From Bacteriovorax sp. (lineage in GTDB: Bacteria; Bdellovibrionota; Bacteriovoracia; Bacteriovoracales; Bacteriovoracaceae), in the NCBI GenBank assembly GCA_028710485.1, contig JAQTTZ010000004.1, positions 1 through 64,000 on the forward strand: a stretch of DNA of 64,000 nt, in the 5' to 3' direction. Under the pieces are notes generated by a model. It made no database searches. It worked only from the letters and a program-made list of their open reading frames with translations, and was not told where the DNA came from. Positions 24,129 through 34,987 of the stretch are shown piece by piece (within the stretch, counting starts at the first letter, position 1; each line of letters opens with the position of its first letter). The position numbers and the translations under genes were made by a program.

Positions 24129-24301
24129 AAATGGTGGCAGTTGCCCAGATATTGTGTCGGCCTAAGGGACAATCACTTAGCTCGTATAATTAGGATTTTC
24201 AGCGAGTTAACGGGCAAAAAGAGTCTCTTGGTTTACCTGAACATCATAAGCTAATAGTATTGAATAATATAAAGATAGTTTGTTTGTCCATCGAGGTACG
24301 T

Positions 24302-27300
24302 ATGTTGAAAATATTAATTCTTATCGCTTTATCTTTTAACATCGCTTTTGCGAAATCAAGATTTACAGATTCCGATAAGAAAAAGTTTATGGAAGAAGTG
24401 AAGCAAGGGATTGCTACTCATAAGCTTGAAAATAAGGGCAAGGTCGACCTCCAAATTATTAAGCCAGGTCTTTATGAAGAACTGGATATTTATTACAATC
24501 AAGAAAAGTTCACTCGTGAAGAGATGGTAAAACTTAAACAAAAATATGAAGAGTTTTCTAAGTCTGGAATAGCGCCGGAAAAAACAGAAGAAGAATTTTA
24601 TAAATTTGTGAATACTCAACTTGAGGAAATCAACAGAACACAAGTCGCAAAAGTTAAAGAAGGAAATGTTTGTAACAACTGGAGTTGCGAGGAAGGATTA
24701 AGGTGTGCCCTGGATCCCAAACAAGAAGATGGGAAATTATGCAAAAGGGGAGGAAGAGAATGTAAGGATAATGGAGACTGCTGTTCTTCGTCTTGCACAC
24801 TCATTAAAAAATTAAACAAAAGATTTTGTGTTGAAGTGAATAGATGCTTTAGACCTCTTAATCTTGGTATGTCGTGTATATTGAATCCCGTTTGCGGAGA
24901 AGGCGAATGCTTAGCATTTAATTCTAAAACTTCAGGAGTAGGAGAGTGCAAGGACAAAAACAAGTCGTGTAAAAAGAATTCAGACTGCTGTTCAAATTCA
25001 TGCAATAGCAACAAATGTATTGAGGCTTATGTTTGTAAAGACTGTATGATAAATGGGAAGAGGCCATCGCGAGGACAAAAATGTTGTGAAGGGCTTTATT
25101 TAAATGACAAAGGCATGTGTGTTCCGGATGCACCTCCCTTTGTTATTCCGCAAGTTAAGATAAAATTAATTCAGAAGTTTTTCATTACTTTGGGTTCAGT
25201 CTTTATTCCGTTTGCTAATGCGGATGAAGCATATGACATAGTTAAGGGTAATGGTGACAAGTATTCAAATTTCAAAGCGGTGTCGATTGATGCAGATATA
25301 GTCCAGGTTAAAAAACCAGAAATAACATTCAAAAGAAAATCAAATTTTAATACTTGCGATATTAGTTTTAGAGATGATTACTTGTTTTTTTTAAAGAACA
25401 ATAAATTTACAACTTCTGGTTGTGAGTATTCAGTTAATGACAAAGGCGTTTTCACCTTTGTCGACACAAACTGTTCGCAGCAGGATACTGGAAAAGCCGA
25501 TCCATCATTATTCGACATGGAATTGGCCCTACTTTCTTTTGACTATATGTTGTTAGGGGACGAGGGGGTGAATGATTATTGGACAAAAAGTTCAAATCCA
25601 GAGTCTTCAATTTATGGGCGCCTAAAAGCTGTAGCAACAAAACATCAACTAGTTCGCAACTCTACCAATGACAAAATTGATGCAAATAATATCAGGCTAA
25701 AATGTATGTGTCTCGATGTTATCGGGCATGACAATATCACAGATAAAGAGAAACAAAAATTCTTTGAAGGGTGTCCTGAATATCAAGTCGCACAAACAGG
25801 AGTCGTTTGTTCTAAGCAAGTTGCATGTGCTGTTGAGGATGGTTTTGCATGTGTTAAAGGTTTTATGCCTCAGAGTTGTAAGAGTGGGGAGGATGGTTGC
25901 ACTTGCACAGGTGGGAGTATTGATAACGTTACCGGCGAAACAGCTTCCGGAATTAAAGGAAAACGGCTTCTGGTTAATTGGACAAAAAATCTTACTTCAT
26001 TTAATGCTTCACTTGCGATCGACAACACCGAGGCTTACAAGGGAGTTGCTGAAGTTTCGACCTGGGCCGCGAACGACGCTAAATGGAATGACGTTGAAAA
26101 CAGAAAATACGATCTTTTTAATTTTAGTATCAAAAATTCAAGTGGAAGTGTTGCTGCCATGGGGGCCATCCTTGGCGCATTGTTGGCAGCTGGAGTAATT
26201 GCAGTATTAGGAGGATTTGCTTCAACTTCTATCTTGACTGCATGGGCGGCAGCCGGAATTATTGCGACCTCCTCTGTAACTGGTGGAACTGGTCTTTGGT
26301 TGATTGCTTCGCTTAAAGGAGCATGGATTTCAAAACGTCCGGAAGTTTTTGATAGATATATTAGAACTTACGGTTGTGGGAAAAAAGAAACTTGTGTGGA
26401 GTACAGCCGCGAATTGAACCAGCCGTATAATAATATTTGTAACGTTCATACTTCTGCCAATGCTTGTGTAAAAAACTTTGTGGTTTACTACGAAGATACG
26501 GAACCTCGTTATTTAGTTGATCCATGGATTCCCAAAGGCGTTTCAAAATCTTTGATCTTTCGAGACTTAAGTGGTGGTAGAACTTACGCCGAAAAAATGG
26601 AAGATGGATTTCAGGCTGCCAAATCTAATATGATTGCTAAAAATCCAGGTGGAGAATTTGTAGCCGAAGATTATATGCGCACTCTTTTTGTGGATGCAAA
26701 TGTTCTAGGTCAATACACTCCTCAAATTGGTTTGGATGATAAACGTTATAATCTCGATGCAACAATTATCGACGAGATAAAATCTAAAGCGAAGAAGTAC
26801 GCGATTGACCAAAAATTCTTTCTAGAAGGCGATACCGAGAATTTAAACAATTTTGCAGACTATACTTATGAATATCATTTCAAATGGCCTAAAACTTCAA
26901 GACAAAAAGAAATTAGTTATCCAACAGTCGGTTTAACGACCTATCTGGATCTAATGGCAAACGGAGTTACAGCAAACATGGCAGCAGGTTCAAGCAATGC
27001 TGCTAAAACTTTTGGTAATTTAAATGCTCAATACCTTCAAGATTATTTAAACACTCTTCATTTGTACAGTGATCTGCCAATCAATCAATCCGATGCGACC
27101 AAGCTTAAATTGATTAACGATGAGATTAATAAGACACAGACAGAGCTTGATAATCAAAAAGTTTTAAATGCTCTCGCTAATAATATAAACCTAGATAGTC
27201 AGTTGATGAATCTGAACCCCAGTGTTATTGATTCAACTGCCAAGTCGGTTGGCGCAAAAGGTGATGTCTCTTTATCAACAGATCAAAAGGCCTTCTTGAA

Positions 27301-27898
27301 TGCCATCGGAACACTCCGAACTGCTAGAAAAACTCAATTGAAAAAACTTGAGGCTTACAATAAGTCCATGGCAACAGGTGGAAATAGTGAGCGCGCAATT
27401 AAGATTGCGTCTGCTTCAAAAAATTTCGCTTCAAGCTTCGCTCGCCCTCTTTCAGGGTCATCTTCTAAAGGAAGCGGAAGCATCTTTGGTTCTGGTGGAA
27501 CAGATGGATTAATGTCTAGTGATAAGAATAAATCAGACTCTTCTAAAAATAATTCGAACTTTGAGGGCGGAAACTATAATACTTTTGGCTTGGGATCGGG
27601 TTCAGGTTCAGGTTCAGGGGCGGGATCTGGGTCAGGTGGTTCTTCTTCTGCGGGGATTGGTAAAACGGGGACTGATAATAAAAATGCAACTGCCGTAGAC
27701 AATGCCGGAAATGGCGTGAGTGATGAAGACAGCCGTAGATTAGCCGAGGCCATTGAAGCTCGCAACAAGTCAAATAAAGACAAATATCAATCTAAAGAAG
27801 AACAGTCTATTTTTGAAAAAGTAACAAATGCTTATATCAGAAATTACGACAAAGTTTTAAGCAAGAAGAAAGACAAGGATGTTATTGAACAAAAGTAA
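24302..27898 (+). CDS. large secreted Cys-rich protein with Gly/Ser-rich tail
   Basis: No known family is recognised. I start it at ATG 24302 (GAGG 6 bases upstream), which gives a clear signal peptide ending NIAFA and a 1198-residue product. The N-terminal third has a Cys-dense block of about 140 residues with two copies of a CxxNxDCCSxSC knot (CKDNGDCCSSSC and CKKNSDCCSNSC). A long hydrophobic Ala/Gly block near residue 630-680 could span a membrane. A helical region follows, and the end is Gly/Ser-rich (repeats of GSGSG) then charged. It is the first gene of an overlapping operon with a membrane acyltransferase-like protein and two polyamine-type enzymes, so it may be their target or surface partner (inference). 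Confidence 0.8.
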   Translation: MLKILILIALSFNIAFAKSRFTDSDKKKFMEEVKQGIATHKLENKGKVDLQIIKPGLYEELDIYYNQEKFTREEMVKLKQKYEEFSKSGIAPEKTEEEFYKFVNTQLEEINRTQVAKVKEGNVCNNWSCEEGLRCALDPKQEDGKLCKRGGRECKDNGDCCSSSCTLIKKLNKRFCVEVNRCFRPLNLGMSCILNPVCGEGECLAFNSKTSGVGECKDKNKSCKKNSDCCSNSCNSNKCIEAYVCKDCMINGKRPSRGQKCCEGLYLNDKGMCVPDAPPFVIPQVKIKLIQKFFITLGSVFIPFANADEAYDIVKGNGDKYSNFKAVSIDADIVQVKKPEITFKRKSNFNTCDISFRDDYLFFLKNNKFTTSGCEYSVNDKGVFTFVDTNCSQQDTGKADPSLFDMELALLSFDYMLLGDEGVNDYWTKSSNPESSIYGRLKAVATKHQLVRNSTNDKIDANNIRLKCMCLDVIGHDNITDKEKQKFFEGCPEYQVAQTGVVCSKQVACAVEDGFACVKGFMPQSCKSGEDGCTCTGGSIDNVTGETASGIKGKRLLVNWTKNLTSFNASLAIDNTEAYKGVAEVSTWAANDAKWNDVENRKYDLFNFSIKNSSGSVAAMGAILGALLAAGVIAVLGGFASTSILTAWAAAGIIATSSVTGGTGLWLIASLKGAWISKRPEVFDRYIRTYGCGKKETCVEYSRELNQPYNNICNVHTSANACVKNFVVYYEDTEPRYLVDPWIPKGVSKSLIFRDLSGGRTYAEKMEDGFQAAKSNMIAKNPGGEFVAEDYMRTLFVDANVLGQYTPQIGLDDKRYNLDATIIDEIKSKAKKYAIDQKFFLEGDTENLNNFADYTYEYHFKWPKTSRQKEISYPTVGLTTYLDLMANGVTANMAAGSSNAAKTFGNLNAQYLQDYLNTLHLYSDLPINQSDATKLKLINDEINKTQTELDNQKVLNALANNINLDSQLMNLNPSVIDSTAKSVGAKGDVSLSTDQKAFLNAIGTLRTARKTQLKKLEAYNKSMATGGNSERAIKIASASKNFASSFARPLSGSSSKGSGSIFGSGGTDGLMSSDKNKSDSSKNNSNFEGGNYNTFGLGSGSGSGSGAGSGSGGSSSAGIGKTGTDNKNATAVDNAGNGVSDEDSRRLAEAIEARNKSNKDKYQSKEEQSIFEKVTNAYIRNYDKVLSKKKDKDVIEQK

Positions 27899-29009
27899 AG
27901 ACGAGGACGTAACGTCGACAAGGATTGTTAACTTAGATTTCTTGCGCGGTTTGTTTATTATCTTCGCACTGGATGAACACTTCACGTACTACATTAACAT
28001 GTGGTATGTGGAATATTTTAGAGATGCTATTGCTCTAACTTCAACATATAAAATTCATTTCCCCATGATTGGGCAACAGATTGCAACAGATCATTTTAAT
28101 TATATGTTAGGTGTTGTTTTTATTCCTTGGGTCAGTCAAGTCTATCTAACATTGGCTTCCTTTAACTTAGCTAAAAAGTCTCAATATATCTTCAAAGAAG
28201 AACTTGGCCCGAAACTAAAGATCTTTGGTTTGATCTATCTTTTTTTTCTTATGGAAAATTTTATTGTGGCTCCAAACTTGGGACAGGCCATTTCATTTTA
28301 TCCAATAATGCTCTGGATGATCATCATGAGTCTCTTGTCGATTGTTTATAGCTTTGTTGGAGTAAGAGGGGTTTTGGTATTAACCATAATTTCGCTTTTT
28401 CGCTGGATTCTTCCTGTTGATTTGATTTCAAATCTGTTTCAGAGTTTTATCATTTATAATATTCATTCTGGATTTGAGTATGATGCACGAATTGAATATT
28501 TTTTCACATCAGGTTGTCTCGGTTTTCTGATGGGATATGTTCATTACCACAAACCCAATCTAAGACATCTTAAAGATATTTATTTTATCTTGATGGGGAT
28601 CGTGTTGGTCGCTTTTTACCTGGCTTACGGCGAGCCTTTGGTTCAAGATCCCGCCAATGCTTTTGCCCATGAACATGACCTGGCTCGAAATTTTAGTGGA
28701 ACACTTTATATCCTTGGGATTCAAGCAATAGTTATTTCTAGCTTTTTATGGCTTGAGAAAAAATCAATTCGTTTCAAAATTCCAATTGTTAATTGGGTTG
28801 GATTCAATTCAATACTTATTTTTGCTTTTCATCGCATATTTTTTGTTCGCATTCTTGCGCCCCTAAGCGTGCTATTTGGAAGTTTGTATGGCCGAACGTT
28901 AGGTGCCTCAACTCTAGAGATGTATATCTATGTCGGCATAACGATTGCTGTTTGCTATTTTATTAAAACCTCTAGGGTGGGGGATATTATTCTCCAAAGA
29001 AAAGGATAA
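27879..29009 (+). CDS. multipass acyltransferase-like membrane protein
   Basis: It has about ten membrane helices. The N-terminal NLDFLRGLFIIFALDEH resembles the opening of acyltransferase-3/DUF1624 (OpgC-like) proteins, in which 'LDxLRG' and a nearby acidic/His pair begin helix 1. A late NSILIFAFHR helix also fits. Such enzymes move acyl groups across the inner membrane onto sugars or polymers. The start overlaps the upstream gene by 20 bases and the next gene begins 9 bases downstream, so it is operonic. The acceptor is unknown, and the assignment is by pattern only. Confidence 0.65.
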   Translation: MLLNKSKDEDVTSTRIVNLDFLRGLFIIFALDEHFTYYINMWYVEYFRDAIALTSTYKIHFPMIGQQIATDHFNYMLGVVFIPWVSQVYLTLASFNLAKKSQYIFKEELGPKLKIFGLIYLFFLMENFIVAPNLGQAISFYPIMLWMIIMSLLSIVYSFVGVRGVLVLTIISLFRWILPVDLISNLFQSFIIYNIHSGFEYDARIEYFFTSGCLGFLMGYVHYHKPNLRHLKDIYFILMGIVLVAFYLAYGEPLVQDPANAFAHEHDLARNFSGTLYILGIQAIVISSFLWLEKKSIRFKIPIVNWVGFNSILIFAFHRIFFVRILAPLSVLFGSLYGRTLGASTLEMYIYVGITIAVCYFIKTSRVGDIILQRKG

Positions 29010-29018
29010 AGGATCATT

Positions 29019-30089
29019 ATGGACACGAGGTCCCAACATTTAATTTTCGATGCTGTTTGTGAAAGAGATTTCACGGATGCTGATATAGATGGCATAAAAG
29101 CAGTTATTGAAAAAGAATTAACGGTCATCAAAAAAGTAGAGCATAAGTTTACTCCACATGGAGAAACAACTGTCTTTATTCTATCAGAGTCCCATTTTGC
29201 GATTCATACCTATCCAGAAAACAGATACCTCTCAATGGATATCTATGTTTGTAATTTAGAAACGAATCTCGGAAAGATCCTGGACGAAATTAAGGGTATC
29301 ATTCCATTTGAAAAAACAGACTCACGAATCTTACTAAGAGGAAAAATTGGGCATAGAGAAGACGACCGCAATTTGAATATGGTTTACTTCTTAACCATCA
29401 TTGTCGCTTGTTGCAGTATTCTCTATGAATTTCTTTTGGCCCAATCCATCTCGACTACCATGGGAAATACAGCTCTCCGCTATAATCTCACCATTGGTTT
29501 ATTTATTGCTTCAATGGGCTTTGGAGCCTTGCTTTATAAAAAGTTTATTTCCAAAGAGTATTTCAAAGAGTTTATTAAAGTTGAACTTCTTCTCTCTCTC
29601 GTCGGGGGAGTTGCTCCGATTTTAGTATTAATAATAGACTATCTTTTCAATATGTTTGCCAGAACTAGCGGCGTCTCTTTTTTTTCATCGTGGGTGCAAA
29701 CTCCGCTCTTCACAATGAACCATCTTTTAATTGTGGCCATTGGTTTTTTATCTGGTTTAGAGCTTCCCCTTCTAATGGATATGAGTCGGCAATTTAAAAT
29801 CACCAAAGGGCATTTTGTTTTAGCTTATGATTATTTGGGAACTTTAATTGGAGCAATCCTTTTTCCTATCGCCATTTTGCCAAGCCTTCATATTTTTACA
29901 ATTGGCTATGTGGTCTCATTGATTAATATCTTGGTCGCTCTTTTTGTCATGATCAAAATGAAGATCGAAAATAAAAGATATAAGTTTATTATTTGGGTAA
30001 TGCTGGTCATTTGGATTTTACTGATCGTAAACTCGAATACTGTTAACCAGTTAATCATTGAAAAATTTTATTTTGGTGGGAAATTTTAA
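29019..30089 (+). CDS. S-adenosylmethionine decarboxylase fused to a membrane domain
   Basis: Residues 1-115 are a complete class 1B (SpeD/SpeH) pyruvoyl decarboxylase. The self-cleavage Ser58 lies in SESHFAIHTYPE, with His63 and Cys78 (IYVC). These match Ser63, His68 and Cys83 of the Thermotoga enzyme in kind and exact spacing. From about residue 118 it continues into 7 or so membrane helices homologous to the membrane domain of the next gene (both share 'S(I)xYExLL' and 'LSGxExPLxM' and 'YLGTLxG' landmarks). It should make decarboxylated SAM at the membrane. SpeD homologues have also turned into arginine or ornithine decarboxylases, so substrate is not certain. The stop overlaps the next ATG by one base. 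Confidence 0.85.
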   Translation: MDTRSQHLIFDAVCERDFTDADIDGIKAVIEKELTVIKKVEHKFTPHGETTVFILSESHFAIHTYPENRYLSMDIYVCNLETNLGKILDEIKGIIPFEKTDSRILLRGKIGHREDDRNLNMVYFLTIIVACCSILYEFLLAQSISTTMGNTALRYNLTIGLFIASMGFGALLYKKFISKEYFKEFIKVELLLSLVGGVAPILVLIIDYLFNMFARTSGVSFFSSWVQTPLFTMNHLLIVAIGFLSGLELPLLMDMSRQFKITKGHFVLAYDYLGTLIGAILFPIAILPSLHIFTIGYVVSLINILVALFVMIKMKIENKRYKFIIWVMLVIWILLIVNSNTVNQLIIEKFYFGGKF

Positions 30090-31804
30090 TGAATGCCAGG
30101 AATTTTATAAAACTAGAGCTTCTCCTAATCACTTCGATTCTTGCTTTTTGTAGCATCGTTTACGAGTTGCTGCTTTCTAATACCTTGGCGATTGTTACTG
30201 GAAATTATATCTGGTGGCAGTCCCTAACTATTGGCGTTTATATCGGAGGGTTGGGACTCGGTGCCTATTACTCTGATCGCTTGAAAAATACTTATAGAAG
30301 TTTAATTAATATAGAGTTAGGTCTTTCTTTTTTAGGGGCCATTTGTGTTGTTTATGTTTATCTTTTTCATGGGACTTATAAATACATAGATAATCTTTTC
30401 TTTTATACGGGGGACTTCTATTCTTCGTTCTATCTGCAAAATATATTTCTTTTAAAAATAGTTTTTTTTATTGCCATTCAAGGACTGACTCTATCAATAG
30501 GCTTGTTGTCGGGGTTTGAAATTCCCTTAATGATGAGAATTGCCGAAGAACATCTCGGTCATTCAGAAGAGGGGGAGCATCAGATCTTGGGTATCAATTA
30601 TCTTGGAACTCTGGTTGGGACTATTTGTTTTGCTTATTTCCTCCTTCCAAAGCTTGATGTTATAAAAACGTCTGTAGTGGTCGCTCTTTTAAATTTATTA
30701 GTTTGTGTTTATTGCCTGGTGAAGTTCGCAAAGTTCAAACGAAGTGTCTATACTGGGTTCATCGCTGCCCTTCTTGTTATGATTTCCATAATTGGGATAA
30801 GTGAACAAAGTATTACTCAAAGGTATTTGAAATTTTTTTATTATCTACCCAAGATTCTCTCTCAGAATAACACTGACCTTGATGACCTCATTAGAAGAGT
30901 GGACAATTTTAAGCCAATTGAGCGCTCAAAATCACTTTATCAGTATGTAGATATTTTTTCTTATCCAACTACCGAAGACAATAAAGTCGTAGAGTCAACG
31001 ATCCTGACTCTCGATACCAATTTTCAATTTAATACCAGCACTGAGTTTTATTATCACCAGGCATTTGCTCACGTTTCAATCATTATGAACAAGAAGGTTC
31101 CTAAAAAGATTTTACTTTTAGGTGGAGGCGATGGATTACTTCTGCGCGAACTACTAAAATATAAAGAGATTGAGTCCATTAAGCATATAGAGCTCGATCA
31201 GAAAATGATTGAGCTGGCCAAGACTCGCTTTGCTGAATTAAATAAGCACTCACTCGATGATCCGCGTGTTCACTCCGAAATTAATGATGGTTTTTATTAT
31301 GTCCGGAATACTACTGATAAGTACGATGCCATTTTTATTGATTTTCCTTATCCTAACTCTTACGATCTGGCCCGCTTGTACAGCTTGGAGTTTTATACCT
31401 ATGTGAGAAGAACACTCAACCCCGGCGGTTTTGTGGTCTTAGATGCACCTTTCTATAACAAGGAAGACTACACTAAGAATAAGTATCAAGGACGTGCTGT
31501 TCTCACTCAAGTTTTTAACGATCGCCATGTGATTAGCAATAGTGTCGTGGCCAGCACCTTTTATTATGCAGGATTTAAATCCTTTTTCCCGTACCGTGTT
31601 TCTGATGAATCCTTTTTATTTTTAAAAGTTGAGCCGGGAGCTATTGATTATAATTTTATGGATAGTGCGGATTTATCAAAGTTAGAACCGCAAACAATTC
31701 GTGAGATGAAAGAAATTAAGAATCAAGAGTTTCCGTACACCATTGCTTTAAAGTACGTGAATTCAATTTTTAAGCCGACTGTAATGAAGAAAAACGAGTT
31801 CTAA
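30089..31804 (+). CDS. membrane-anchored spermidine-synthase-like protein (COG4262 type)
   Basis: The N-terminal 7-helix membrane domain is paralogous to that of the preceding gene. The C-terminal Rossmann aminopropyltransferase domain has GGGDG at 345-349 and acidic HIELD ending the next strand. Typical enzymes have a 'DE..YHE' gate and 'D..DP' catalytic loop. Here these read TEFYYHQ and DFPYP, so two acidic groups thought to handle the amine are changed. It may use an unusual acceptor or have lost classic spermidine synthase activity. It is coupled by TAATG to the decarboxylase gene, which would supply its aminopropyl donor. Confidence 0.85.
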   Translation: MNARNFIKLELLLITSILAFCSIVYELLLSNTLAIVTGNYIWWQSLTIGVYIGGLGLGAYYSDRLKNTYRSLINIELGLSFLGAICVVYVYLFHGTYKYIDNLFFYTGDFYSSFYLQNIFLLKIVFFIAIQGLTLSIGLLSGFEIPLMMRIAEEHLGHSEEGEHQILGINYLGTLVGTICFAYFLLPKLDVIKTSVVVALLNLLVCVYCLVKFAKFKRSVYTGFIAALLVMISIIGISEQSITQRYLKFFYYLPKILSQNNTDLDDLIRRVDNFKPIERSKSLYQYVDIFSYPTTEDNKVVESTILTLDTNFQFNTSTEFYYHQAFAHVSIIMNKKVPKKILLLGGGDGLLLRELLKYKEIESIKHIELDQKMIELAKTRFAELNKHSLDDPRVHSEINDGFYYVRNTTDKYDAIFIDFPYPNSYDLARLYSLEFYTYVRRTLNPGGFVVLDAPFYNKEDYTKNKYQGRAVLTQVFNDRHVISNSVVASTFYYAGFKSFFPYRVSDESFLFLKVEPGAIDYNFMDSADLSKLEPQTIREMKEIKNQEFPYTIALKYVNSIFKPTVMKKNEF

Positions 31805-33101: not shown

Positions 33102-33950
33102 ATGGGACTTCGAATTAACACCAACGTGGCGTCTTTAAACGCACAGAGGAATTTAGGATCTACCCGGATCAACATGAACAAGTCTTTGGAGAAACTTTCT
33201 TCAGGACAAAGAATCAACAGAGCTGGTGACGATGCTGCCGGACTCGCGATCTCGGAAAACTTAAAAGCACAAATTAAAGGTCTAGGTCAAGCAGAAAGAA
33301 ACGCTGAAGACGGTGTTTCACTAGTTCAGATTGCGGAAGGTGCTTTAGGTGAAGTTTCAAACATCCTAATCAGATTAAGAGAACTTTCGGTCCAAGCTGC
33401 TTCTGACACTATCGGTGGTACAGAACGAAAATTCCTTAACGTGGAATTTGAACAATTAACTTCGGAAGTTGATCGTATCGCAAACTCTACTGAGTTTAAC
33501 CGCGTACCATTACTTAACGGAACCGGTGCAGTGTTTGATATTCAAATCGGTACACGTAATGATCCTATCTCAGATAGATTAACATTTGATGCTTCTTCAG
33601 CCGACGTTAACGTTGCTGCTCTTGGATTAAATCTTGCTTCTGTTTCAGATAAAATTTCAGCACAGAACTCTTTGACTTCAATTGATCAAGCGATCATTTC
33701 TGTATCAGGGATTAGAGCGGACTTTGGTGCTCTTCAAAACAGATTGCAGTCAACAGTTAACAATATTCAAGTAAGTATTGAGAACCTTTCTTCTGCAAAC
33801 TCTCGAGTAAGAGATACGGATGTAGCTGCAGAAACTGCGGAGTTAACAAAACAAAATATCCTAATGCAAGCTGGTACGAGTGTGCTTTCTCAAGCTAACT
33901 CAAGTACTAACTCGGCACTAGCTTTAATTCAGGCTGCTGCTCAACGCTAA
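33102..33950 (+). CDS. fliC: flagellin
   Basis: This is the structural subunit of the flagellar filament, exported by the flagellar type III system. The D0/D1 N-terminal motif GLRINTNVASLNAQRNL, LSSGQRINRAGDDAAGLAIS and the C-terminal SSANSRVRDTDVAAETAELT are all typical. At 282 residues it has only a short variable domain. A near-perfect AAGGAGG ribosome site and a sigma-28 promoter precede it. A paralogue follows 200 bases later. Multiple flagellins within a sheathed filament are common in this lineage. Confidence 0.96.
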   Translation: MGLRINTNVASLNAQRNLGSTRINMNKSLEKLSSGQRINRAGDDAAGLAISENLKAQIKGLGQAERNAEDGVSLVQIAEGALGEVSNILIRLRELSVQAASDTIGGTERKFLNVEFEQLTSEVDRIANSTEFNRVPLLNGTGAVFDIQIGTRNDPISDRLTFDASSADVNVAALGLNLASVSDKISAQNSLTSIDQAIISVSGIRADFGALQNRLQSTVNNIQVSIENLSSANSRVRDTDVAAETAELTKQNILMQAGTSVLSQANSSTNSALALIQAAAQR

Positions 33951-33965
33951 TAAGCAATGAGTTTC

Positions 33966-33987
33966 AATCATGCCTGCAAGCGTGATT
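33966..33987 (+). other. imperfect hairpin after first flagellin
   Basis: Arms AATCATGC and GCGTGATT (one wobble) enclose a 6-base loop 15 bases after the stop. No T-run follows, so it may be an RNA stabiliser or processing site rather than a terminator. Confidence 0.35.
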
Positions 33988-34094
33988 TGATGCTGAATTA
34001 AAAAGATCGAATGAAGAGACCTAACATTGTAGTAGATGGTTAGAGCTGTAATTGAATTGTATTACGTATTGAATTTAAAAATAACAACAATTTT

Positions 34095-34113
34095 TTCGAA
34101 CAAGATGTTCGAA
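34095..34113 (+). promoter_or_regulatory. inverted repeat in second flagellin leader
   Basis: The perfect arms TTCGAACA and TGTTCGAA are separated by AGA, 37 bases before the ATG. It could be a 5' leader hairpin or a protein operator. No sigma-28 promoter like that of the first flagellin is seen in this gap. Confidence 0.45.
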
Positions 34114-34150
34114 GTATTACCAGGAAGGTTTGTATGAAAGGAGATTAAAA

Positions 34151-34987
34151 ATGGGTTTAAGAATAAATACAAATATTCCGTCGCTATCAGCACAGAGATC
34201 TTTAGGGATCAACACTAGAGCACAAAACGATAACCTAAGAAAGTTATCTTCTGGTGAACGTATAACTAGAGCAGGTGACGATGCAGCGGGATTAGCAATA
34301 AGTGAAAACTTAAAAGCAAGCATTAGGGGAATGAGACAAGCCAAAAGAAATGCTGGCGACGCCATCTCAATGTTACAAGTGGCAGAAGGTGGAATGAATG
34401 AGATCTCGAGTATGATTATCAGACTTAGAGAACTTTCAGTCCAGGCCGCTTCAGATACAGTGGGAACTACAGAGAGGGGATTCTCAGACATTGAATTTCA
34501 AAATCTTAAAGAAGAGATTGATAGAATTTCAAAGTCCACAGAGTTTAACGGAATTAAACTTCTCGATGGAACAGGCGGAAAACTCGAATTCCAGGTCGGT
34601 ATAAAAAATGATCCTCTCCTCGATAGACTTCACTACGACGGAGCAGGAGCGGACGCATCCGTTGAAGCACTGGGCTTGTCAGTGGATGGGGTGTCTACGA
34701 AAGAAGGTGCACAAGCGGCGCTTAAGAAACTTGATGATGCTTTGGTGCATATCAACGGAACGAGAGCAAACTTTGGGGCCCTTCAGAATCGGTTACAGTC
34801 GGTCACTAACAATCTTGAAGTCAGCGATGAAAATTTATCTGCTGCCAACTCGAGAATTAGAGATGTGGATGTAGCTTCTGAAACTGCAGAACTGGCAAAG
34901 AATAATATTCTTCTACAGGCCGGAGTTTCAGTGTTATCGCAAGCGAATCAGTCGCCGAACTCAGCTCTTAAACTACTACAAGGTTAA
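34151..34987 (+). CDS. flagellin paralogue
   Basis: This is a 278-residue flagellin. I start it at ATG 34151 (MGLRINTNIPSL), which has AGGAG 6 bases upstream; an earlier in-frame start would add a non-flagellin leader. It has the same N- and C-terminal motifs as its neighbour (LSSGERITRAGDDAAGLAIS and SAANSRIRDVDVASETAEL). It differs mainly at the variable middle and ends earlier, at LLQG. It is followed by a strong terminator, so the two flagellins may share a transcript or be separately controlled. Confidence 0.95.
   Translation: MGLRINTNIPSLSAQRSLGINTRAQNDNLRKLSSGERITRAGDDAAGLAISENLKASIRGMRQAKRNAGDAISMLQVAEGGMNEISSMIIRLRELSVQAASDTVGTTERGFSDIEFQNLKEEIDRISKSTEFNGIKLLDGTGGKLEFQVGIKNDPLLDRLHYDGAGADASVEALGLSVDGVSTKEGAQAALKKLDDALVHINGTRANFGALQNRLQSVTNNLEVSDENLSAANSRIRDVDVASETAELAKNNILLQAGVSVLSQANQSPNSALKLLQG

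What the first reader, a model, noticed from the sequence alone, without database searches (positions are those of the whole stretch)
24302..27898. Undescribed secreted Cys-knot protein
Two CxxNxDCCSxSC knots in a 140-residue Cys-dense block, a long Ala/Gly hydrophobic segment and a Gly/Ser tail make an unusual 1198-residue architecture. DCCSxSC knots are typical of eukaryotic knottins and toxins. It could be a predator adhesin, an invasion factor or the modification target of the operon.
Basis: partly seen in the sequence, partly recalled or inferred. Interest (0 to 1): 0.5.

Follow-up and report, generated by a model that had tools for sequence, protein, structure and literature searches.

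The report
Bacterial protein with two cystine knots
This is an undescribed, very large, apparently exported bacterial protein that carries two disulfide knots of the kind known from spider and cone-snail venoms, ends in a tail shared by many other proteins of its bacterial family, and is encoded in a row with membrane-bound polyamine-type enzymes, so it points to an unknown cell-surface system in relatives of predatory bacteria.

Summary
An 1198-residue ORF lies at 24302-27898, without any Pfam or NCBIfam match over cut-off or a meaningful PDB relative. Both knots have inhibitor-cystine-knot (ICK) spacing. Across 38 related Cys domains, an unbiased scan puts C147-C161, C216-C230 and C223-C234 among its five best pairs, the ICK pairs C1-C4 (twice) and C2-C5. 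On a tree built without that domain the two C1-C4 pairs change 6 and 3 times, always together. Fold and profile matches to ICK peptides exist but are weak.

(1) The Gly/Ser stretch is a linker, not a tail. It leads to a C-terminal motif found in 47 sampled genomes of the family (3 listed without), always at the protein's end where I checked. (2) The gene heads an operon-like run: a putative membrane acyltransferase, an AdoMet-decarboxylase-7TM fusion, a 7TM-spermidine-synthase. The decarboxylase-7TM fusion occurs in 17 of 129 family genomes searched, each time one or two genes downstream of this protein.

Best reading: an envelope-anchored surface protein, possibly the client of the membrane aminopropyl module. 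Function is inferred; nothing was tested experimentally.

The parts
24302..27898 (+). The 1198-aa exported Cys-knot protein (P0001)
24302..24352 (+). Signal peptide, residues 1-17 (MLKILILIALSFNIAFA; AFA-K cleavage site, by inspection)
   Evidence: hydropathy; conserved in orthologs; no signal-peptide program was run
24671..25120 (+). Cys-dense block, residues 124-273, 24 Cys
24740..24829 (+). ICK domain 1, C147-C176 (C-x6-C-x5-CC-x3-C-x10-C)
   Evidence: spacing; co-loss of C147/C161; Foldseek (weak)
24947..25018 (+). ICK domain 2, C216-C239 (C-x6-C-x5-CC-x3-C-x4-C)
   Evidence: spacing; co-loss of C216/C230 and C223/C234; profile matches (weak)
26138..26341 (+). Ala/Gly-rich hydrophobic hairpin-like segment, residues 613-680
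   Evidence: hydropathy; helices in a very low-confidence model
27449..27721 (+). Gly/Ser/Asn-rich linker, about residues 1050-1140
   Evidence: composition; alignment
27797..27871 (+). Shared C-terminal tail motif, residues 1166-1190 (core SIFEKVTNAYIRNYDKVL)
27879..29009 (+). Hydrophobic, apparently multi-pass protein with an acyltransferase-3-like LD-x2-RG-xn-H start (376 aa; resemblance recalled); overlaps P0001 by 20 bp
   Evidence: no acyltransferase family in 10 members; a 42% identical relative matches DUF418/Acyl_transf_3 only at E 0.01-0.02, below cut-off
29019..30089 (+). AdoMet-decarboxylase (SpeD) domain fused to a 7TM-type domain (356 aa)
   Evidence: PF02675 8.6e-17; match to the membrane part of NCBIfam PRK03612; active-site ESH and Cys
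30089..31804 (+). 7TM-type domain fused to a spermidine-synthase-like domain (571 aa)
   Evidence: PF01564 3.3e-31; DFPYP in place of DSTDP

Best explanation
P0001 is an exported envelope protein of a Bacteriovoracaceae lineage. Seen in the sequence: a signal-peptide-like start, a 24-Cys block with two ICK (knottin) domains, an Ala/Gly hydrophobic hairpin, a Gly/Ser linker, and a C-terminal tail shared with other proteins of the family. Inferred: Sec exports it, periplasmic disulfide formation locks the knots, the hairpin anchors it in a membrane with both flanking Cys regions outside the cytoplasm, and the flexible linker presents the tail to a common envelope receptor or sorting machine. Its operon partners form a membrane-bound second copy of the aminopropyl pathway: SpeD-7TM makes decarboxylated AdoMet at the membrane, and 7TM-SpeE, whose diamine-binding Asp is replaced, transfers aminopropyl to an acceptor other than putrescine. 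With the acyltransferase-like protein this most likely decorates the exported protein, or an envelope molecule it works with. The knots most likely serve as a rigid binding head at the surface. All steps after the sequence features are inference.
For: Knots: paired spacing that 0 of 20000 shuffles give. Co-loss scan of 38 Cys domains: C147-C161 19 both/0 one/16 neither (3 rows with a gap set aside), C216-C230 35/0/3, C223-C234 36/0/2. On a quick tree from residues after the domain (36 rows) C147 and C161 change 6 times each and C216 and C230 3 times each, always together; 5 of 5 and 3 of 3 independent pairs on starred branches; the wrong pair C216-C234 never goes the same way. Foldseek's first hit is a funnel-web spider ICK toxin, prob 0.96, target TM 0.75, but E 0.46. 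13 of 25 PDB profile hits are small venom- or ICK-type peptides by name (two names are not telling), all over the Cys block, best E 0.13. Operon: SpeD-7TM in 17 of 129 family genomes, six genera, each time downstream of a P0001 homolog; order P0001-AT-SpeD-SpeE in 16 of 17; gaps of -74 to 78 bp in the 15 loci with all four whole genes. In another genus the four genes stay together while the flanks differ. A second, soluble-type speD and speE lie elsewhere in the genome. SpeD ESH and Cys kept in the 12 copies aligned; SpeE DSTDP replaced by DFPYP in the 18 aligned. Tail: 49 of 49 matches at E<=0.01 lie 0-34 residues from the C-terminus, 26 of 26 lie 0-16 from it in 20 further loci.
Against: AlphaFold was poor: Cys domain pLDDT 51 (33 of 180 residues at 70 or more), full length pLDDT 30. 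No Foldseek hit reaches E 0.001, and 24 of the 47 are coagulation-factor chains with EGF-like domains. The best PDB profile hits are not knottins (E 0.0048 and 0.029, other parts of the protein). Pfam toxin hits are weak. By the tree tool's sign test no single pair reaches 0.05; the argument is the pooled 9 joint and 0 single changes at the two C1-C4 sites. One row set aside (L111) has Cys at 161 and a gap at 147. Relatives without the enzyme trio exist (G007 in the same genus; others), so the protein does something without them. The trio's link to P0001 looks like one acquisition in one clade. G010 has a 7TM-only gene without the SpeD domain. SpeD-7TM was not sought outside the family. No data on expression, location, modification or phenotype.
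Confidence: 0.45

Rival explanations
1. P0001 is a surface or stalk protein (adhesin-like) that is not modified; the trio only makes an aminopropylated or acylated envelope lipid or polyamine under the same regulation.
For: P0001 homologs without the trio; membrane SpeE genes in other bacteria sit in PspA/DUF350 envelope-stress operons (PMC11237479, passages).
Against: In 129 family genomes SpeD-7TM was not seen away from a P0001 homolog (17 of 17); a split 7TM/7TM-SpeE pair in other genomes again has pseudopilin-like proteins within six ORFs (11 of 12 loci).
Confidence: 0.3
2. P0001 is a secreted attack protein: the Ala/Gly hairpin inserts into a prey membrane and the knots bind a target.
For: Hydrophobic hairpin inside an apparently exported protein; weak Holin-X-like hits on that segment in P0001 (E 2.3) and in a homolog fragment (E 0.0066), both below cut-off; the named relative is a Bacteriovoracaceae MAG.
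Against: Several other tail proteins also have hydrophobic segments, which fits an ordinary membrane anchor; no toxin family match in P0001 itself; predation by this organism not shown.
Confidence: 0.15
3. The Cys block is not an ICK but another disulfide or metal-binding fold.
For: AlphaFold confidence is low; about half of the Foldseek hits (24 of 47) are coagulation-factor chains.
Against: Co-lost pairs are C1-C4 and C2-C5 in ICK order, with the spacing.
Confidence: 0.12

Closest known systems
Inhibitor cystine knot (knottin) peptides (e.g. funnel-web Hc3a, maurocalcin, omega-atracotoxin, conotoxins)
   Same: Six-Cys spacing with CC in the middle; C1-C4 and C2-C5 pairing inferred from co-loss; short, weak fold and profile matches.
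   Different: Two copies inside a 1198-residue bacterial protein with other Cys-rich parts; in P0001 no Pfam toxin hit at all; no evidence of toxicity.
7TM-SpeE operons with PspA/DUF350/DUF4178 (PMC11237479, passages) and polyamine-independent SpeD (Li 2019, cited there, not read)
   Same: Spermidine-synthase-like domain fused to a 7TM transporter-like domain, in some operons with AdoMet decarboxylase, in an envelope context.
   Different: By Pfam/NCBIfam none of the four genes here is PspA, DUF350, DUF4178 or ATP-grasp; SpeD itself is fused to the 7TM-type domain; the partners are a giant Cys-knot protein and an acyltransferase-like protein.
C-terminal sorting tags (MYXO-CTERM/myxosortase, PMC11980579 abstract; PEP-CTERM and GlyGly-CTERM, listings only)
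   Same: Short motif at the very C-terminus shared by different, apparently exported proteins of one lineage, often after a low-complexity linker.
   Different: No transmembrane helix and no Cys in the P0001 tail; no sorting enzyme identified.

Membership tests
Inhibitor cystine knot (knottin) | Six Cys in consensus spacing CX3-7CX3-8CX0-7CX1-4CX4-13C (recalled) | tested here: met
   147-176 and 216-239
Inhibitor cystine knot (knottin) | Disulfides C1-C4, C2-C5, C3-C6 with a ring-and-thread fold | tested here: inconclusive
   C1-C4 (both knots) and C2-C5 (knot 2) supported by co-loss; C3-C6 only by elimination; model pLDDT 51
Inhibitor cystine knot (knottin) | Sequence match to a known family over its cut-off | tested here: not met
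   Best UPF0506 (2.1e-4, 3 of 34 homologs, not P0001); the one bit score printed is below cut-off
Class 1b AdoMet decarboxylase (SpeD) domain | Pyruvoyl-forming Glu-Ser-His and catalytic Cys (recalled) | tested here: met
   12 of 12 operon copies aligned (of 17); substrate not testable, since SpeD homologs can be Orn/Arg decarboxylases (PMC10407285, passages)
Spermidine synthase (SpeE) | dcAdoMet-binding G-G/A-GDG and catalytic Asp | tested here: met
   kept in 18 of 18 copies aligned (17 operons plus G010)
Spermidine synthase (SpeE) | Second acidic residue (D-x-x-D) that holds the diamine (role recalled) | tested here: not met
   Tyr in 18 of 18 copies; Asp in the 2 soluble-type SpeE aligned
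Acyltransferase-3 / DUF418-like membrane acyltransferase | Pfam match over cut-off | tested here: not met
   No family in the window protein and no acyltransferase family in 10 members; a 42% relative below cut-off
MYXO-CTERM type sorting tag | Invariant Cys, TM helix, Arg-rich end | tested here: not met
   Residues 1166-1198 have no Cys and no hydrophobic 19-mer

The most novel reading that the evidence does not exclude
Bacteriovoracaceae own a re-partnered membrane module (acyltransferase + 7TM, with or without SpeD, + 7TM-SpeE) that covalently installs an aminopropyl or polyamine-derived group on exported client proteins. In this lineage the client is a tandem-knottin protein. In other genera it is large pseudopilin-like proteins, two loci with a Hint-like domain that could take an amine by self-cleavage. 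The shared C-terminal tail would be a new sorting or docking signal for exported proteins of the family.
Probability: 0.12. Interest if true: 0.85.

Novelty: new variant of a known kind. Interest (0 to 1): 0.6.

Why it matters
Knottins are known mainly from animals, plants and fungi (recalled). A bacterial protein family with two of them, whose pairings can be read from natural Cys co-loss, makes their function in bacteria testable. The pairing of SpeD-7TM with this protein gives a concrete candidate for the unknown acceptor of membrane aminopropyltransferases. The shared tail defines a set of 1-9 matches per genome (E<=0.05) that can be searched for a common receptor in a group with predatory relatives.

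Tried and rejected
Full-length AlphaFold of P0001 with one homolog: pLDDT 30, unusable; not searched further. Cys-domain model: only its Foldseek hits are used, as weak support. The TTG start at 24260 was rejected, since homologs start at 24302. Tandem-repeat origin: none found. Holin-X match on the hairpin: E 2.3 in P0001, below cut-off. Naming the 376-aa protein from Pfam or PDB failed. Neighbours (four ORFs of 90 aa or more each side, where the contig allows) of 21 homologs taken as lacking the trio: a different partly conserved neighbourhood and no BLAST match to the trio. Promoter scan: 20 sites against 26.3 expected, no information; 11 terminator-like sites against 5.4 expected, not followed. 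My note says 18 of 18 for SpeD-7TM 'directly beside' P0001. Checked later: G010 has a 7TM-only gene, and in 16 loci the acyltransferase-like gene lies between; the count is 17 of 17, one or two genes downstream. C124-C135 and 117-130 also co-vary, but C124-C135 has only 1-2 changes on the tree, so no claim is made. One regex 'pilin' (L160) lies in a transporter-like protein and was dropped. The 50 of 129 genomes include about a dozen that match only the last third (linker and tail), so they are not all relatives of the whole protein. Hydrophobic N-termini were counted crudely: 41 of 49 tail proteins, but also 311 of 607 fetched ORFs of 200 aa or more, so 'exported' rests on inspection. Literature searches for this protein, its tail, such operons or bacterial knottins listed no description of it; several listings were capped (e.g. 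15 of 28, 15 of 4,534) and the library holds only CC-licensed PMC papers. PMC6406012 (passages) reports an insect-type antimicrobial peptide gene in one Streptomyces strain; I could not tell whether it is an ICK.
Full report
What is there. Window 24302-27898 (+) encodes 1198 residues without a stop. A DNA search finds the gene once in the genome. Pfam-A gives only a below-cut-off E 2.3 hit, NCBIfam nothing, the PDB only low-complexity-type matches (best E 0.0043, in the Gly/Ser part). Collinear relatives fill most of the genus and reach other genera: a protein search of 37 related genomes found 18 with a match; of 129 genomes of the family 50 match at E<=1e-5, about a dozen of them only in the last third. 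A profile of the Cys block found 38 domains (E<=1e-10, one duplicate gene dropped) in the loci fetched. One named record is a MAG titled Bacteriovoracaceae bacterium (L032). The genome's reported contamination is 8%, but the operon recurs in eight other genomes of the genus.

Anatomy. Residues 1-17 look like a signal peptide. Residues 124-273 hold 24 Cys; more Cys lie at 352-535 and 692-722. Residues 613-680 are Ala/Gly-rich and hydrophobic. About 1050-1140 are Gly/Ser/Asn-rich. The last ~55 residues are charged and conserved. In an alignment of 34 homologs the tool reports 22 invariant columns, 16 of them Cys.

The knots. Both motifs extend to six-Cys ICK spacing: C-x6-C-x5-CC-x3-C-x10-C and C-x6-C-x5-CC-x3-C-x4-C. 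I scanned all Cys columns of the 38 domains for pairs lost together. The five best pairs were C147-C161 (19 with both, 0 with one, 16 with neither, p 2.5e-10; three rows with a gap set aside, one of which, L111, has Cys at 161), C124-C135 (19/2/12), a pair P0001 itself lacks (117-130, 11/1/15), C216-C230 (35/0/3) and C223-C234 (36/0/2). In ICK numbering three of them are C1-C4 of knot 1, C1-C4 of knot 2 and C2-C5 of knot 2. A quick tree of 36 homologs, built only from residues after the Cys block (two short rows dropped; two long branches flagged), counts 6 changes at C147 and 6 at C161, 3 each at C216 and C230, always together, and one joint change at C223/C234; the wrong pair C216-C234 never goes the same way. 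No single test reaches significance by the tool's sign test; pooled, the two C1-C4 sites give 9 joint and 0 single changes. The Cys-domain model is poor (pLDDT 51), yet Foldseek's first PDB hit is an ICK spider toxin over 37 columns at 1.7 A (E 0.46, prob 0.96); 24 of its 47 hits are coagulation-factor chains. The family profile has 25 PDB matches at E<=5: the two best lie elsewhere in the protein, and 13 are small venom- or ICK-type peptides by name, all over the Cys block (best E 0.13). Single homologs hit UPF0506, Conotoxin_I2, Toxin_7 and Toxin_29 weakly; P0001 itself does not. I take the ICK fold as likely, not proven.

The C-terminal tail. A profile of the last ~44 residues finds matches in 30 of 57 genomes, all within the 35 of the window's family. 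In the fetched loci 49 of 49 matches at E<=0.01 lie 0-34 residues from the C-terminus; 17 are P0001 relatives, 32 are other ORFs without the Cys-block profile (one, in L070, is the back half of a broken relative), and 14 of the 49 built the profile. Some of the others share more of P0001's last third as well. A shorter profile matches, at E<=0.05, 73 of 191 genomes of the phylum: 47 of the family and 26 outside it; outside, only weakly (best E 9.2e-5). In 20 further loci, picked for a hit and not for its position, 26 of 26 matches among 166 ORFs lie 0-16 residues from the end; 23 have E<=1e-4 and two have E above 0.1. Three P0001 homologs and three other tail proteins have no NCBIfam family. 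The core reads roughly S-(I/L)-(F/W)-x2-(V/I)-(S/T)-(N/K)-x-Y-x-(R/K). In P0001 it has no TM helix and no Cys, unlike MYXO-CTERM (abstract of PMC11980579). What reads it is unknown.

The operon. Downstream, overlapping by 20 bp, lie a hydrophobic acyltransferase-like protein (AT, 27879), a SpeD domain fused to a 7TM-type domain (29019) and a 7TM-SpeE protein (30089). Of 129 family genomes 36 match the SpeD-7TM query, but only 17 over the SpeD domain as well; the others match only its membrane half. In all 17, from six genera, a P0001 homolog lies upstream on the same strand. The order P0001-AT-SpeD-SpeE holds in 16 of 17 (in G231 the P0001 homolog is cut by the contig end); G046 lacks the AT between them. 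In G018, another genus, the four genes stay together at 30-39% identity while the flanks differ. On the tree the 15 trio-bearing proteins included fall in one clade of 17 rows (G046 and G231 are not in the tree). The two other rows are G007, which lacks the trio (a C92-family amidase gene follows instead), and G010, which has a 7TM-only gene without SpeD. So this looks like one acquisition kept for long. In 21 loci taken as lacking the trio no match to it lies within four ORFs.

What the enzymes may do. The genome has another speD and speE side by side elsewhere (C44), and a third, weak spermidine-synthase match on C204, so the window pair is a second, membrane-bound set. SpeD active-site residues are kept in the 12 copies aligned. 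SpeE keeps its AdoMet-binding motif and first Asp, but DSTDP of the soluble enzyme reads DFPYP in the 18 copies aligned. The second Asp binds the diamine (recalled), so putrescine is an unlikely acceptor. Caveat: SpeD homologs can be ornithine or arginine decarboxylases (PMC10407285, passages). 7TM-SpeE proteins are known from PspA operons, where aminopropylation of other substrates was suggested (PMC11237479, passages).

A parallel. I fetched 21 of the 26 loci in which only the membrane half matched outside such operons. Of these, 12 show a split pair (7TM-only plus 7TM-SpeE), and 11 of the 12 have a pseudopilin-like protein within six ORFs; the 8 loci with a single fused gene have none, after dropping a regex match in a transporter-like protein (L160); L143, cut at a contig end, also has pseudopilins. 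Two of these loci have a Hint-like ending: one was tested, Intein_splicing E 1.7e-5, below cut-off, the other is by regex only. Relatives of the AT occur in three of them (L117, L155, L158). That the module pairs with different exported-looking proteins supports, without proving, that such proteins are its clients.

Verdict. Observation confirmed, interpretation partly supported. I commit to an envelope-anchored, tail-sorted protein with a two-knot head, working with a membrane aminopropyl module that most likely modifies it or its partner (0.45 for the whole, higher for the anatomy, lower for the chemistry).

Noticed in passing
L116/L162, L117, L144, L145, L148, L150, L153, L155, L157, L158, L159 (other genomes of the family): Split 7TM + 7TM-SpeE pairs, several with acyltransferase-like genes, have large pseudopilin-like proteins within six ORFs, many with Cys-rich ends; two loci have Hint-like C-termini.
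   Followed up: partly
L064:4377-8810 (own genome, C73): Two tandem proteins (709 and 756 aa) with the ISNRY form of the tail and several hydrophobic segments; no Pfam match over cut-off.
   Followed up: partly
L119:215-2007 (own genome, C44) and L044, L045, L098, L105 and others: A ~340-aa gene next to the soluble-type speD in the window's genome has, by eye, the same kind of start (MSS-x2-WG) as a conserved gene next to trio-less P0001 homologs in other genera; may be chance.
   Followed up: no
L040:12377-13777: In G007 a C92-family amidase gene (PF05708, 4.3e-21) stands where the polyamine trio is in its relatives.
   Followed up: no
33102-34987: Two adjacent flagellin-like genes (by eye) downstream of the operon; the first is 96-100% identical in the relatives compared.
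   Followed up: no
24671-25120 and L042, L095: A further covarying Cys pair (columns 117/130) exists in relatives but is absent from the window protein.
   Followed up: no
L070:3155-6894 (G040): The P0001 homolog is split into two ORFs on one contig; one search reports stops inside the match. Decay or sequencing error.
   Followed up: no
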